Under the pieces are notes generated by a model. The model was given only the letters and a program-made list of their open reading frames with translations, was not told the origin of the DNA and did no database searches. The position numbers and the translations under genes are program-made. 64,000 nt of DNA from NCBI GenBank assembly GCA_927797885.1, contig OV696605.1, positions 2,641,157 through 2,705,156 on the forward strand, in the 5' to 3' direction. Positions 416-60,291 of the stretch are shown here, one piece after another (within the stretch, counting starts at the first letter, position 1; each line of letters opens with the position of its first letter). Source of the DNA: Gloeomargaritales cyanobacterium VI4D9 (GTDB lineage: Bacteria; Cyanobacteriota; Cyanobacteriia; Gloeomargaritales; Gloeomargaritaceae).

Positions 416-610
416 TCACTTAAGGACGCTGGTAATAATGACCGTGAGCGTTGCACTAGCAATCAGGGTAAAAGCCAACTGCACCACCCACTGGGTAGCC
501 TTCTGATAGTTGTCGAACTTGTTGTTGAACTTCTCCAGCTCCAGGCGTAGCTGATCCAGTGCGGCGGCTAAACCCTCCAGGGTGGGTGGGGTATCGTTTC
601 TGTTCTCCAT
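416..610 (-). CDS. Small coiled-coil, single-TM protein (heptad-membrane family, member 1)
   Basis: A 64-residue protein. Residues 1-33 are polar and helix-forming with a heptad-like pattern (LDQLRLELEKFNNKFDNY), and residues ~40-63 form one hydrophobic span (QLAFTLIASATLTVIITSVL). GGAG lies 7 bases before the ATG. It is the short form of a family with two more members here, at 50293-50610 and 59258-59668; all share a Y/F-Q-K/A motif just before the membrane span. The function is unknown; a membrane-tethered oligomer is an inference. This copy sits among genes of the putative integrated element. Confidence 0.6.
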   Translation of the reverse strand: MENRNDTPPTLEGLAAALDQLRLELEKFNNKFDNYQKATQWVVQLAFTLIASATLTVIITSVLK

Positions 611-3833: not shown

Positions 3834-4941
3834 CAGAAGTGTTGAAAGGTAGGTAAAGGCAGAAAAAGAGGGGTCAAAATATGGTATTCTAATTCATATA
3901 AACCAAAACATGAAACAACTATGAAATTCAATTCTTTTCCCGGGATTGTCAAATTTTTACTCAAAGACCTGCCAACTAATGATTATCCAGTTCTAAATTC
4001 TCGCTTATTTTGTTCAATCTGGTTTGCTGGCATTTTAGACAAAGGAATCAACAGTTTACGGGACTTATTTTACCAATTAAATCATGCGGGCATTAAGGTT
4101 GACTTATCCACGTTTTCTAAGGCGAACAAGACAAGAGACCCACAAATTTTTATGCATCTTTATCATAAATTATTGCATTATATTGAGGAAGCTCATCCTG
4201 AAAAGAGGTTGGTTTTATGTCCTTTTGATGCTACCGTAATACCGCTGATGAGTAAGTTATTTTGGCTCCAAGGCTATCGCCAAGTAAAGTTAATAACCAC
4301 TTTGAATCAAGATACGAAATCTACTGGTCATTTAATTGTTAGTCCTGGACAGGCACATGAGATTAATTTTGGTGAAGATATTGTGAAAATGCTACCGGAA
4401 AATGGAGTCGCAGTCGGGGATAGAGGGTTTTGCAGTCACAAAGTATTTGAACAATTTATCGAAAATGATGCCCTTTTTATTATCCGTATTAAGTCGAATT
4501 GGAAATGGGATGAAAACTATCATATCACCACAGAACGAGGTAAGGCGAGAGTAGTTTGTTTTGGCAATGTTCAACAGAAAGTAGACTATTATTTAGCTAC
4601 CAATATTCCTGAGGATGTAATGAGTAATGAAGAGATAGGGGAAGCCTATAGACAACGCTGGGCGATAGAGGTACTATGGAAATTTCTAAAGATGAACTTA
4701 AAGCTCGATAAAATGATGAGTAAAAATTTGAATGGAATTACCATTCAAATTTATGTAATTTTAATAGTTTACTTGATATTGCAACTGTTAAAAGTTCCAC
4801 GGATGTACGGAAGTAAATTGGCAGATAAGTTCCGATATATACAAATCTTAATACGGCAGGAGTGGAATTTTGTCCATTGGCTCAATCGGGTCGTCCCACG
4901 CCTAAATATGTAAAGTTTTATTGCAGGATTCAACACTTGTG
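3834..4941 (+). mobile_element. IS4-like insertion sequence, copy 1 (1108 bp)
   Basis: The ends CAGAAGTGTTGAA and, reverse-complemented, CACAAGTGTTGAA match at 12 of 13 bases. The flanks carry a perfect 9-bp direct repeat, GCCTTATCC, at 3825-3833 and 4942-4950. Removing the element restores the reading frame of the interrupted IS5-like transposase. One transposase gene fills the inside. Confidence 0.9.
3921..4913 (+). CDS. IS4-family transposase
   Basis: A 330-residue DDE transposase of the IS4 group found in many cyanobacteria. The first catalytic Asp lies in CPFDATVIPL (~residue 97), the second in VAVGDRGFCSHKVF (~residue 164), and the YREK-type region appears as EAYRQRWAIEVLWKFLKMNL (~residue 240) with the expected Glu. 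The gene is full length with no frameshift, and its terminal repeats and target duplication are intact, so the element may be active. It shares its N-terminal layout (LPTNDYPVLNSR) with copy 2 at 15709. Confidence 0.9.
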   Translation: MKFNSFPGIVKFLLKDLPTNDYPVLNSRLFCSIWFAGILDKGINSLRDLFYQLNHAGIKVDLSTFSKANKTRDPQIFMHLYHKLLHYIEEAHPEKRLVLCPFDATVIPLMSKLFWLQGYRQVKLITTLNQDTKSTGHLIVSPGQAHEINFGEDIVKMLPENGVAVGDRGFCSHKVFEQFIENDALFIIRIKSNWKWDENYHITTERGKARVVCFGNVQQKVDYYLATNIPEDVMSNEEIGEAYRQRWAIEVLWKFLKMNLKLDKMMSKNLNGITIQIYVILIVYLILQLLKVPRMYGSKLADKFRYIQILIRQEWNFVHWLNRVVPRLNM

Positions 4942-5287: not shown

Positions 5288-6530
5288 GGGCACCTCTATT
5301 AATTGATTTTGGGAGGGATTTGTGAGATAATTAGTATTAACGACGTGGAGAGGGAAAATGGGTCAAAAAGGATTTTGGGATGAGCAAGAGCGGCGGGAAA
5401 AACTCAATCAGAAAAAGCCCATGCTGAAGTGGCTCAATGAAAATATTAACTGGGAAGATTTCCGACCCATATTAGAAACCATATATGACAAGGAAAGAAA
5501 GAGTAATGCGGGTCGAAAACCCACCGACGTCATTGTGATGTTTAAATTGTTGATTCTCCAACAAATGTATGCCCTTAGTGACGATGAACTCGAGTTTCAA
5601 GTGAATGACCGTATCTCGTTCATGGAATTCCTAGGATTGGGTATCGAAGACGCTATCCCTGATGCCAAAACGGTCTGGCTATTTCGGGATAATCTCGCCA
5701 AGCACGATCTAGTCAAAGAAGTATTTGCTCACTTTGATAATTACCTGAGAGAAAAAGGATATATTGTCGAAGTTGGTCAGATTGTGGATGCCACTCTCAT
5801 TCCCGTGCCAGTCCAACGAAATACTCGGCAAGAAAATCAAGAAGTAAAGGAAGGGAAAATTCCTAAGCAATGGGAGGAAAAACCCCAGGTTTTACGGCAA
5901 AAGGATAGAGATGCCCGTTGGGTAAAGAAAAATGGTGTCAGCTATTTTGGCTATAAAAATCATATCAGTGTGGATGTAAAATATGGTTTTGTGCGTCATT
6001 ATGTGGTCACGGATGCCTCCGTGCATGACTCACAAGTATTCAGTCAACTGGTGGATATTGATGGGTCGGAAATCTGGGGAGATAGTGCCTATCACAGCAC
6101 GGATTTAGAATGGACGTTAGCCAGGATTGGATTTACCAGTCACATCCATGAAAAAGGCTACCGAAATCAGCCCCTAACCGCAGAGCAAAATGAAAAGAAT
6201 CGCATCAAATCTAAAGTGAGAGCCAAGGTGGAACACGTATTTGGTCAGTGGGTGATGTGTCTTGGGGGTAAATTCATGCGTCTGATTGGTAAAACCAGAG
6301 TAGAAGCGGCAATTGGTTTGAAAAATTTGGCTTATAATTTCCGCCGTTATGCGTTTTGGGAGCGGCAGTCCCTGGCCGATAATCTGTGAGTTTTGACCCC
6401 CTACTAAGTCTCTTTTCAATCATATCTACAGCAATCTATAAAACCCAGTCATCTTAGTACAAAAAAGTACTGAGCAATGCTATGCTGTTTTTGTGTTTCG
6501 TTCTCATATTTTGAATAAATAGAGGTGCCC
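5288..6530 (+). mobile_element. Intact IS5-family insertion sequence (1243 bp), parent of R2 MITEs
   Basis: Both ends read GGGCACCTCTATT inward. The element is flanked by the 4-bp target duplication TAAA (5284-5287 and 6531-6534). It contains one uninterrupted transposase gene. The same ends occur on the short R2 repeats elsewhere in the window, which points to this IS as their source of transposase. Confidence 0.9.
5358..6389 (+). CDS. IS5-family transposase
   Basis: A 343-residue transposase. An N-terminal helical domain (GFWDEQERREKLNQKK, then GRKPTDVIVMFKLLILQQMY) is typical of IS5. The DDE core follows: VDATLIPVPVQ (~residue 143), IWGDSAYHSTD (~residue 240), and the late RAKVEHVFGQW region with its catalytic Glu (~residue 290). 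The gene is uninterrupted. A purine-rich GGAGAGGGAAA precedes the ATG. Given the short R2 elements with matching ends, it probably also mobilises them in trans. Confidence 0.92.
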   Translation: MGQKGFWDEQERREKLNQKKPMLKWLNENINWEDFRPILETIYDKERKSNAGRKPTDVIVMFKLLILQQMYALSDDELEFQVNDRISFMEFLGLGIEDAIPDAKTVWLFRDNLAKHDLVKEVFAHFDNYLREKGYIVEVGQIVDATLIPVPVQRNTRQENQEVKEGKIPKQWEEKPQVLRQKDRDARWVKKNGVSYFGYKNHISVDVKYGFVRHYVVTDASVHDSQVFSQLVDIDGSEIWGDSAYHSTDLEWTLARIGFTSHIHEKGYRNQPLTAEQNEKNRIKSKVRAKVEHVFGQWVMCLGGKFMRLIGKTRVEAAIGLKNLAYNFRRYAFWERQSLADNL

Positions 6531-15619: not shown

Positions 15620-15708
15620 CAGAAGTGTTGAATGTTAACGAAAGGGTGGAAAAGGGAGACTAAAAATGGTATTTTAGATTGGTAGAAACCACGAGTAATA
15701 GTATTTTT

Positions 15709-16680
15709 ATGAGACGACAAATTCAGGGACTTATCAAGCCATTGCTCAACCTTCTTCCCAAAAACGACTATCCAGTCTTAGATACCCGCCTGTTTGTCCT
15801 CATCTGGATACACTTTATTTTAGATGCGAGAGTCTCCACGATGCGGGGCTTATTTTTTCTCTTAAACCATCTTAATTTCAGAGTTGATATATCTACATTT
15901 TCTAAAGCGTGTAAACATCGTAGCACTGAACCGTTTCAATTAATTTTAAGAGAACTACAAAAGCGGCTTAAAAATCATCAAGGGGAAAGATGGCTACGCC
16001 ACGCAAGCTATAAGCACTTATTTCCATTAGATTCCACTGTGATAACCCTAACTAGCAAATTGTTTTGGCAACACAAACAGGTCAAGCTAGCTCTTGGCTT
16101 TGACATAAATGAGGGTAACATCGGGGATGAATCGATTGTATTTGGAGAAACTAATGACCACAAGATTGGTCATATTATGATTGGAACGATACCCGAGAAT
16201 GCCATTGGCATCATGGATAGAGGCTTTGCATCTTGGAAATTGATGGATGAAATGTGCCAAAGAAATACATTGTCTATTGTACGGATTAAAAATAATATGA
16301 AGTTGCAACCTGATAACCCTAATATTCGGGTAGTTCAATTTTTTAGTTCAGAGGAAAATACGGAATATAGACTTGCGACAAATGTAACCTCTATGAGGGA
16401 TGAAGAGGTTTGTTTAGCCTATCGTTTGCGCTGGCGAATCGAACTGCTTTGGAAGGCGTTGAAGATGCACCTAAAATTGGATAGAATTATTACTAAAAGT
16501 GAGAACGGTGTGCGGCTACAGATTTATGCTGTATTGATTGGTTATCTGATTTTGAAATTACTAAAGATAGGTCAGAATAAGACTTATGAACTTACGGATA
16601 AGTTGCGATATTTACAGATAGAAATAGGCAGGCACTGTACCTTGATGGAACTTGTGGGTGTAGAGCCCCTGGTAGGGTAA
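15709..16680 (+). CDS. IS4-family transposase carrying an in-frame small-repeat insertion
   Basis: A 323-residue DDE transposase homologous to that of copy 1 (LLPKNDYPVLDTR, FPLDSTVITLTSKLFW, IGIMDRGFASWKLMD, AYRLRWRIELLWKALKMHL). Between ~residues 94 and 103 it has 7-8 extra residues (WLRHASYK), encoded by 15991-16014, which match the ~24-bp small dispersed repeat of this genome. The insertion keeps the frame and lies just before the first catalytic Asp. Whether the enzyme still works is unknown. I start at the ATG at 15709, which aligns with copy 1. Confidence 0.88.
   Translation: MRRQIQGLIKPLLNLLPKNDYPVLDTRLFVLIWIHFILDARVSTMRGLFFLLNHLNFRVDISTFSKACKHRSTEPFQLILRELQKRLKNHQGERWLRHASYKHLFPLDSTVITLTSKLFWQHKQVKLALGFDINEGNIGDESIVFGETNDHKIGHIMIGTIPENAIGIMDRGFASWKLMDEMCQRNTLSIVRIKNNMKLQPDNPNIRVVQFFSSEENTEYRLATNVTSMRDEEVCLAYRLRWRIELLWKALKMHLKLDRIITKSENGVRLQIYAVLIGYLILKLLKIGQNKTYELTDKLRYLQIEIGRHCTLMELVGVEPLVG
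15991..16014 (-). repeat. Small dispersed repeat (SDR-like) inserted in frame in the transposase
   Basis: GGCTACGCCACGCAAGCTAT is the reverse complement of the motif found at many intergenic sites (GCGTGGCGTAGCCATA type). Alignment with transposase copy 1 is gap-free once this segment is removed. Confidence 0.75.
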
Positions 16681-50292: not shown

Positions 50293-50610
50293 ATGACCGA
50301 ACCGTCCCCAGTGACCCTAGAAACCATTGCCCAAACCTTGGCGGAGTTTCGTCAGGAGGTGAATAGCCGCTTGGATCCGTTGGAAACCCGATTAGACCAA
50401 GTGGAAAACCGATTGAATAAAGTGGAAAACCGTTTAGATGCCCTAGAGGGGGATTTCCGGCAATTTCAGGCGGTGAATGAAGCCTATCAGAAAGCCGCTG
50501 ACCGGGTAGCGAATTTGGCCTTTACGGTGGTGACCGCCTCTGCCGCCGTGATTGTCTTGGCACCTGCGGTCAAGGTTTTAGCCGAGTATGTGACCCGTTT
50601 GCCCGCGTGA
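50293..50610 (+). CDS. Heptad-repeat, single-TM protein (heptad-membrane family, member 2)
   Basis: A 105-residue protein. Residues ~20-55 are a heptad array (RLDPLETRLDQVENRLNKVE, NRLDALEGDFRQF). The shared pre-membrane motif NEAYQKAADRVANLAFTVV follows, with one hydrophobic span to ~residue 97. It is homologous in layout and motif to the proteins at 416-610 and 59258-59668, which differ mainly in the number of heptads. The topology suggests an oligomeric coiled coil at a membrane; the role is unknown. It follows ctaB by 42 bp on the same strand. Confidence 0.65.
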   Translation: MTEPSPVTLETIAQTLAEFRQEVNSRLDPLETRLDQVENRLNKVENRLDALEGDFRQFQAVNEAYQKAADRVANLAFTVVTASAAVIVLAPAVKVLAEYVTRLPA

Positions 50611-59257: not shown

Positions 59258-59668
59258 ATGCCAATGGAATTATCACCCCAAGAGTTTCAGAATCAAGTGC
59301 TTACGGAATTGCGTGGCATTAGCACCCGCTTGGATAAGGTAGAAAGCCGTTTGGACAAACTCGAGAGCCGTTTGGATAACATAGAGACGCGGGTGGGAAA
59401 CTTGGAAACTCGGGTAGGGAACTTAGAGACTCGGGTAGGGAACTTAGAAACTCAGGTAGGCAATTTGGAAGCTCAAGTAAGTAAGTTAGAAACCCAAGTG
59501 GAAAACCAGGACTATAAATTTGATGTGTTTCGTCAGGCTACGGATAACCTTACGCGCTTGGCGACGACAATTATTATCACCGCTGGAACTGTGACGGTAT
59601 TGGCGAATTTAGGACCATCACTGCTGAATTTAGCTGTCCGGCTTACTGAACTGGCTACTAAGAGTTAA
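59258..59668 (+). CDS. Heptad-repeat, single-TM protein (heptad-membrane family, member 3)
   Basis: A 136-residue protein. Residues 24-79 are eight exact heptads (RLDKVES, RLDKLES, RLDNIET, RVGNLET three times, QVGNLEA, QVSKLET), a long parallel coiled coil. The family pre-membrane motif follows (YKFDVFRQATDNLTRLAT), then one hydrophobic span (TIIITAGTVTVLANLGPSLL). The heptads are encoded by a 21-bp tandem repeat. It is related to the proteins at 416-610 and 50293-50610. Unknown role; the variable rod length suggests a spacer or sensor stalk. Confidence 0.65.
   Translation: MPMELSPQEFQNQVLTELRGISTRLDKVESRLDKLESRLDNIETRVGNLETRVGNLETRVGNLETQVGNLEAQVSKLETQVENQDYKFDVFRQATDNLTRLATTIIITAGTVTVLANLGPSLLNLAVRLTELATKS
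59327..59494 (+). repeat. 21-bp tandem repeat (8 units) inside the coiled-coil gene
   Basis: Eight consecutive 21-bp units; units 4, 5 and 6 (59390-59452) differ by only a few bases (CGGGTAGGGAACTTAGAGAC T type), which indicates recent duplication. Confidence 0.85.
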
Positions 59669-59727
59669 TCCGGGGTATTTGGCAGTAATAGTCCAAAGAT
59701 TTTTGGGAATTGCAAATTTTTAATATA

Positions 59728-59826
59728 TAGCAATCCTATTTGATTAACCAACAAAAATTTCCCAGAACCAAGAACGGGGGCGGTGTCCCTGCGACTCCCT
59801 ATTCCATTTTCATTTAGGATTGCTAT
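59728..59826. repeat. R1 repeat copy
   Basis: TAGCAATCCTATTTGATTAA to CATTTAGGATTGCTA with the CAGAACCAAGAACGGGGGCG core; it has a full inverted-end structure. Confidence 0.85.
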
Positions 59827-59827
59827 C

Positions 59828-59968
59828 GGGCATCTCTATTTATTTGAGCCAACCTATAGCCTGCGTGGCGTAGCCATAAATCTCATCGTTAGCATACCCA
59901 TATTACCCAGAACCAAGGGCGGGGGTGCCCCTGCGACCCGTATTCCATTTTCATTTAGGATTGCTATA
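59828..59968. repeat. Composite repeat (R2 end + SDR + R1 half), copy 2
   Basis: GGGCATCTCTATTTATTTGA, then TAGCCTGCGTGGCGTAGCCA TAAATCTCATC, then the R1 half ending CATTTAGGATTGCTATA. It is nearly identical to 29572-29705. Confidence 0.8.
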
Positions 59969-59970
59969 TA

Positions 59971-60068
59971 GAAATTTTACTTGATTAATCAACAGAAATC
60001 TCCCAGAACCAAGGATGGGGGCGTTGCCCCTGCAACCCCTATTCTACTTTCATTTAGGATTGTTACAT
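59971..60068. repeat. R1 repeat copy
   Basis: GAAATTTTACTTGATTAATC to CATTTAGGATTGTTACATA, with CCCAGAACCAAGGATGGGGG in the core. It is the third R1-type unit in a row. Confidence 0.8.
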
Positions 60069-60291
60069 AGCCATTCTTACTGCCAAGGCGCATCTCAGGT
60101 CTTTTGCATGAGAAGTACTGCGGATAAATTCTCCTAAAAGAGCGGCCATTTTTAGTTTTGTACAGGTCGGCATTCTTACCTCCCTAGTTATGCCTCTTAC
60201 GCTTTAATTTATTAGCCCACACAAGGACGGCTATCCCTACTGCCTCTTAGCGGTGATTCTCTTACCATGAAGGTAGTGATGTTCTCAAAGA

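What the first reader, a model, noticed from the sequence alone, without database searches (positions are those of the whole stretch)
59258..59668. A heptad-membrane protein family that changes rod length by 21-bp duplication
Three genes in this window (416-610, 50293-50610, 59258-59668) encode the same plan: a polar N-terminus, heptads, a shared F/Y-x-K/Q-A motif, and one C-terminal membrane span. They differ mainly in heptad number (about 2, 4 and 8). In the longest, the heptads are DNA-level tandem 21-mers with three nearly identical units, so the rod grows by slippage. One member is inside the putative mobile element. I know no described function.
Basis: partly seen in the sequence, partly recalled or inferred. 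Interest (0 to 1): 0.6.

Follow-up and report, generated by a model that had tools for sequence, protein, structure and literature searches.

The report
Membrane rods that change by heptads
Cyanobacteria carry a family of small membrane-anchored, rod-shaped proteins whose rods gain and lose exact seven-residue units between sister species while both ends stay almost unchanged, and whose front ends can be swapped; the family already has a database name but its function is unknown.

Summary
The three window genes are homologous and belong to one cyanobacterial family with an existing NCBIfam model, NF053525 "ssr2422 family thylakoid membrane protein". This genome has about 10 copies; a profile of the C-terminal anchor finds the family in 124 of 334 good Cyanobacteriia genomes. 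Each protein is cap + heptad rod + one C-terminal membrane span.

Of seven orthologous pairs between this genome and a sister species (~92% DNA identity, shared flanks), six differ in rod length by exactly one or two heptads (21 or 42 bp); in the seventh the units are rearranged. Ordinary genes in the same blocks have no such indel in 22 kb. The rest of each protein is under strong purifying selection (pooled dN/dS 0.09). The rule recurs in other genera.

New here: caps are exchanged. At one syntenic locus the cap was replaced while the 5' flank, rod and anchor stayed orthologous.

Not shown: slippage versus unequal crossing-over, oligomeric state (trimer suggested by R-hxxhE motifs), membrane, function. 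My best functional guess is a trimeric spacer or tether. Length change by 21-nt heptad repeats has a close precedent, the Mycoplasma pneumoniae RepMP1/DUF16 genes.

The parts
59258..59668 (+). longest window member, P0001, 136 aa; ssr2422 family
   Evidence: ORF; NF053525 78.6 bits, cut-off 38; orthologue in sister species G003 is 129 aa, exactly one heptad shorter
59258..59326 (+). N-terminal cap (LSPQEFQNQVLTELRGIST), residues 1-23
   Evidence: cap type FQxQVLxELRxIxxRLD recurs with several different anchors and across Cyanobacteriia
59327..59494 (+). heptad rod, 8 units of 21 bp (residues 24-79)
   Evidence: TRF rows 59326-59387 and 59378-59493; unit table; six R-hxxhE motifs; AF2 continuous helix 7-115, pLDDT above 90 over most of the rod
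59510..59665 (+). neck and C-terminal anchor (YKFDVFRQATDNLTRLATTIIITAGTV...), residues 85-136
   Evidence: homologous anchor alignment A2; hydropathy peak at residues 105-123; anchor model confidence low
50293..50610 (+). second window member, P0002, 105 aa, 4 heptads
   Evidence: NF053525 57.4 bits; orthologues 98 aa in G003 and 111 aa in G004, rod indels of 7 and 14 aa
50365..50448 (+). heptad rod of P0002, four R-hxxhE units
416..610 (-). third window member, P0003, 64 aa, near-rodless, anchor type II
   Evidence: NF053525 86.6 bits; 65% identical relative on an IMG/VR contig

Best explanation
These are members of the ssr2422 family: tail-anchored cyanobacterial proteins made of an N-terminal cap, a coiled-coil rod and one C-terminal membrane helix. 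Shown: the rod-coding DNA gains or loses whole 21-bp units, so rod length steps by one heptad (about 1 nm) without disturbing cap or anchor, and cap cassettes have been exchanged between paralogues, the repeats being the shared sequence on one side. Inferred: the rods are parallel trimers (repeated R-hxxhE motifs) standing on the cytosolic side of thylakoid or plasma membrane, acting as spacers or tethers that hold the cap's partner at a set distance, with several cap/length/anchor versions per cell. I put the architecture and mode of evolution at about 0.9, the trimer at about 0.6, and the spacer/tether function at about 0.3.
For: All three window genes pass the NF053525 cut-off. G000 has about 10 copies. 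In seven orthologous pairs G000/G003 placed by flanking DNA, rod differences are 7, 14, 7, 14 and 7 aa, one extra unit in the cap-swapped pair, and one pair rearranged by +7/-7. Control in the same blocks: 2 indels of 1 bp in 22,238 bp of other ORFs, none of 21 bp. dN/dS pooled 0.09, window gene 0.03. The same rule in other genera: internal gaps are 7 or 14 in nearly all comparisons. Adjacent units share codons beyond a synonymous shuffle, 540 against 502 +- 9. Cap swap: L114 (G000) and L138 (G003) share 5' flank, rod and anchor (1.9 kb, 92.5%), but the stretch from just after GGAGTA to the first heptad differs; both caps, with the DNA just upstream, occur in G004 on another anchor. R-hxxhE in 59 of 105 members against 6.3 +- 2.4 in polar-residue shuffles. 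AF2 gives one unbroken helix 7-115. The closest solved sequence is the reovirus sigma-1 fibre coiled coil, a trimer by my own knowledge.
Against: No structure, localisation or phenotype was available. The thylakoid location rests only on the NCBIfam name, and no held paper treats ssr2422. R-hxxhE also occurs in some dimers (PMC3653964), and members such as P0003 lack it. AF2 was run as a monomer and confidence in the anchor is low. Codon similarity of adjacent units is not significant in the window gene alone. A few inter-species gaps are not multiples of 7 (4 and 1 aa). The neighbours sampled show no constant partner.
Confidence: 0.55

Rival explanations
1. The rod is a neutral linker: any length works, so 21-bp slippage products simply drift to fixation, and length has no functional meaning.
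For: Nearly every orthologous pair differs in length, as expected if length is unconstrained; caps and anchors are strongly conserved.
Against: Rod residues themselves stay conserved and in heptad register; but no test here separates drift from selection on length.
Confidence: 0.4
2. Heptads look alike because selection on a coiled coil converges, not because DNA units duplicate.
For: In the window gene adjacent units share synonymous codons only slightly above chance.
Against: Orthologues differ by clean 21/42-bp indels, which point changes cannot make, and pooled codon sharing is above the shuffle.
Confidence: 0.05
3. A phage-derived lysis or anchoring factor of the XhlA kind, spread by prophages or contractile-injection clusters.
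For: XhlA model 30.0 bits on P0001 and PHROG hemolysin families match; P0003 lies between phage-type recombination genes; one relative sits on an IMG/VR contig beside tail-hub-like and LysM-like genes.
Against: XhlA is below its cut-off of 34.7 and the anchors alone give no such match. No match of P0003 in 50,697 phage records. G000 and G003 hold no sheath gene yet many copies. Many copies sit among housekeeping genes.
Confidence: 0.08
4. A diversity-generating surface or decoy family whose caps and lengths vary to escape phages or predators.
For: Many paralogues, cap exchange and length variation.
Against: Protein sequence is highly conserved rather than diversifying (dN/dS 0.09); no signal peptide is apparent by eye, so the cap is probably cytosolic.
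Confidence: 0.05

Closest known systems
NCBIfam NF053525, ssr2422 family thylakoid membrane protein
   Same: All three window genes and most homologues tested score above the cut-off of 38 bits; cyanobacterial.
   Different: The 77-position model fits neck and anchor with a short rod; its name says nothing of variable rod length, paralogue number or cap exchange. The L116-type member (30.6 bits) falls below the cut-off.
Mycoplasma pneumoniae RepMP1 / DUF16 coiled-coil proteins (PMC3472980)
   Same: Large paralogous family of unknown function; 21-nt tandem repeats code for heptads; strains differ by 7 or 14 residues; parts of two genes fused by recombination.
   Different: DUF16 scores only 28.3 bits against a cut-off of 40 on the window gene, matched on rod and neck; unrelated phylum; I saw no YQKA-type anchor described there.
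XhlA haemolysin (PF10779)
   Same: Short heptad coiled coil followed by one C-terminal membrane span (from my own knowledge).
   Different: 30.0 bits, below the cut-off of 34.7, best stretch on the rod only.
DUF7310 (PF23991) and FlaC_arch (PF05377)
   Same: Both models pass their cut-offs on P0001 (43.1 and 31.5 bits).
   Different: Both match only the heptad rod; the anchor alone matches neither. Taken as generic coiled-coil similarity.

Membership tests
NF053525 ssr2422 family | profile score above the curated cut-off (38 bits) | tested here: met
   P0001 78.6, P0002 57.4, P0003 86.6 bits
NF053525 ssr2422 family | occurs in cyanobacteria | tested here: met
   of 14 well-known control genomes only Synechococcus elongatus matches; 124 of 334 good Cyanobacteriia genomes by anchor profile
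NF053525 ssr2422 family | single hydrophobic C-terminal segment | tested here: met
   hydropathy peaks 1.68, 2.26, 2.15 near the C-terminus; AF2 anchor uncertain
NF053525 ssr2422 family | located in the thylakoid membrane | not testable with these tools
   only the model's name; no paper found
DUF16 / UPF0134 (Mycoplasma) | Pfam DUF16 score above its cut-off (40) | tested here: not met
   28.3 bits
DUF16 / UPF0134 (Mycoplasma) | 21-nt heptad repeats varying in copy number | tested here: met
   a shared mode of change, not membership
XhlA (PF10779) | score above its cut-off (34.7) | tested here: not met
   30.0 bits
parallel trimeric coiled coil with R-hxxhE | R-h-x-x-h-E motif with R at g and E at e | tested here: met
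   six in P0001, four in P0002, none in P0003; 59 of 105 members
parallel trimeric coiled coil with R-hxxhE | three-stranded state | not testable with these tools
   AF2 was run as a monomer only

The most novel reading that the evidence does not exclude
The family is a combinatorial kit: exchangeable cap cassettes, a rod whose length is set in 1-nm steps by 21-bp repeat number, and several anchor types, which together let a cyanobacterium retune spacing at its membranes within the time of speciation.
Probability: 0.25. Interest if true: 0.75.

Novelty: new variant of a known kind. Interest (0 to 1): 0.5.

Why it matters
Exact heptad steps with conserved ends are an unusually clean natural series for asking whether coiled-coil length is a tuned property or neutral slack. 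The family is widespread, small, and named after a Synechocystis-style gene (ssr2422), so deletion, localisation and length-swap tests are cheap. If length is functional, it would be a natural molecular ruler at cyanobacterial membranes; if not, it is a clear case of neutral repeat drift between constrained ends.

Tried and rejected
Literature on ssr2422: none in the held library; the single hit is a plant SSR marker. Contractile-injection-system anchor: raised because an IMG/VR relative lies beside tail-hub-like and LysM-like genes; rejected as the general role because G000 and G003 have no sheath gene but many copies. Phage lysis protein: no phage-record match, XhlA below cut-off. Constant gene partner: the neighbours sampled are unrelated (UbiA, NmrA-like, GerMN, ferrochelatase, LMW phosphatase, zf-HC2, TPS/DUF4347). 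The genome-contig scan with P0001 returned nine places, all outside cyanobacteria, which I take as generic heptad similarity. Single-linkage clustering of caps merged the classes and was not used for counts; the shuffle rests on direct comparison of sequences. A literature search on Gloeomargarita coiled coils gave nothing relevant.

Full report
What is there. The finding's main gene, 59258-59668 (+), encodes 136 aa: a short N-terminal cap, eight heptads, a neck and one hydrophobic C-terminal segment. 50293-50610 (+) encodes 105 aa with four heptads. 416-610 is on the minus strand and encodes 64 aa, almost only neck and anchor. Tandem Repeats Finder independently-bp arrays in the two longer genes.

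They are one family. Searching the window's own genome (G000, one contig of 3.16 Mb) with each protein, and then with an alignment, gives about ten loci. The neck-anchor module is clearly homologous among them and among homologues in other genera. NCBIfam already holds a model for it, NF053525 'ssr2422 family thylakoid membrane protein'; the three window genes score 78.6, 57.4 and 86.6 bits against a cut-off of 38. Pfam models that pass their cut-offs on the longest gene (DUF7310, FlaC_arch) match only the rod, and the anchors alone match no Pfam family above its cut-off. With the anchor profile the family is found in 124 of 334 good Cyanobacteriia genomes and 63 of 160 genera, with up to 13 matches in one genome. 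The NF053525 model rings in only one of 14 well-known control genomes, Synechococcus elongatus.

Rod length changes by whole heptads. Flanking DNA identifies orthologues in G003, a species of the same genus at about 92% DNA identity. The longest window gene has 129 aa there: one clean 21-bp gap, everything else aligned. P0002 differs by 7 aa, and three other loci by 14, 7 and 14 aa. A sixth locus, where the cap also differs, has one unit more in G003, and a seventh has equal length with +7/-7 rearrangement. As a control, other ORFs of the same aligned blocks carry two gaps of 1 bp in 22,238 bp and none of 21 bp. The proteins are under strong purifying selection outside the indels: pooled dN/dS is 0.09, and 0.03 for the longest gene. 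Orthologue-like sets in other cyanobacterial genera follow the same rule: of 58 internal gaps in pairwise comparisons (not independent events) 41 are of 7 and 9 of 14 residues, the exceptions being 4 and 1.

Is it DNA duplication? Units 5 and 6 of the window gene differ at one base. Over the whole rod of that gene the sharing of synonymous codons between neighbours is not significant (p = 0.18 and 0.09 by two tests); over 46 members it is (540 shared codons against 502 +- 9 in 500 shuffles). Slippage and unequal crossing-over cannot be told apart here.

Caps move. At one locus the sister species share 1.9 kb at 92.5% identity, including the upstream flank, most of the rod and the whole anchor, but the stretch from just after the putative ribosome-binding site (GGAGTA) to the first heptad is different. 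Both alternative caps, together with the DNA just upstream, exist in a third species (G004), on a different anchor type. More widely, the anchor TGERLERLATSLIAGATIAVIAGVV or its close variants occurs with at least three caps, and the anchor GLDGMVRMATTIIITTGTVIVIGNLV with three.

How it probably works. AlphaFold2 gives one unbroken helix from residue 7 to 115 with high confidence over the rod and low confidence in the anchor. The rods are rich in R-hxxhE, the motif for parallel trimers (definition in PMC3653964): six copies in P0001 and four in P0002; 59 of 105 members carry one, against 6.3 +- 2.4 when polar residues are shuffled. The nearest solved sequence is the reovirus sigma-1 fibre. No signal peptide is apparent by eye and the only strongly hydrophobic segment is C-terminal, so the rod should stand on the cytosolic side (inference). 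I therefore propose an upright trimeric spacer or tether, the cap being the working end. The neighbours sampled do not point to a partner. Neutral drift of a permissive linker remains a serious rival.

Known or new. Copy-number change of 21-nt heptad repeats in a large paralogous coiled-coil family is described for Mycoplasma pneumoniae RepMP1/DUF16 genes, including 7- and 14-residue changes between strains and one gene fusion (PMC3472980). The present family is not DUF16 by its score. I found no paper on ssr2422. The combination of a conserved tail anchor, exact heptad steps between sister species and cap exchange appears undescribed, as far as the held library shows.

The mobile-element remark. 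The gene at 416-610 lies between a RusA-like resolvase gene and an ORF with a weak Sak-type annealing-protein match, with transposase genes nearby. A 65% identical relative lies on an IMG/VR contig with tail-hub-like and LysM-like genes. This supports mobility for that one member. A wider link to contractile injection systems is not supported, since G000 and G003 lack a sheath gene.

Organism.

Noticed in passing
window 59724-60075 and G000 genome-wide: A MITE-like intergenic repeat with ends TATATAGCAATCCTA / TAGGATTGCTATATA lies just downstream of the main gene in partial copies; its core TTCATTTAGGATTGCTAT has 40 exact copies in the genome, none for the reversed control. Three of about ten family genes (near C1:47945, 2244092, 2700821) have an exact copy within 500 bp, against about 0.2 expected by my rough estimate.
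   Followed up: partly
L224 (IMGVR_UViG_3300039417_000008): A contig filed as viral carries a 69-aa ssr2422-like gene between a LysM-like tail gene and a 751-aa tail-hub/peptidase-like gene, with a TnpB-like gene inserted; it could be a contractile injection cluster rather than a phage.
   Followed up: partly
L124 (G004:C1:9000-26000): Three family genes follow one another within 1.3 kb, downstream of a TPS/DUF4347 gene, with a fourth 3.2 kb upstream: a cluster of paralogues with different caps and anchors.
   Followed up: partly
L140:5139-5579 (G001:C12): One family member has lost its anchor, apparently by a frameshift just before the membrane span; a possible pseudogene or assembly error.
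   Followed up: no
L145:4833-5198 (G006:C192): A standard cap and rod end in an unrelated hydrophobic C-terminus (DVIKWVGGISAGLSISAAIALVGLV), so even the anchor can be replaced.
   Followed up: no
window 3921-4913, 5358-6389, 15679-16680: Three DDE transposase genes in the first quarter of the window.
   Followed up: no
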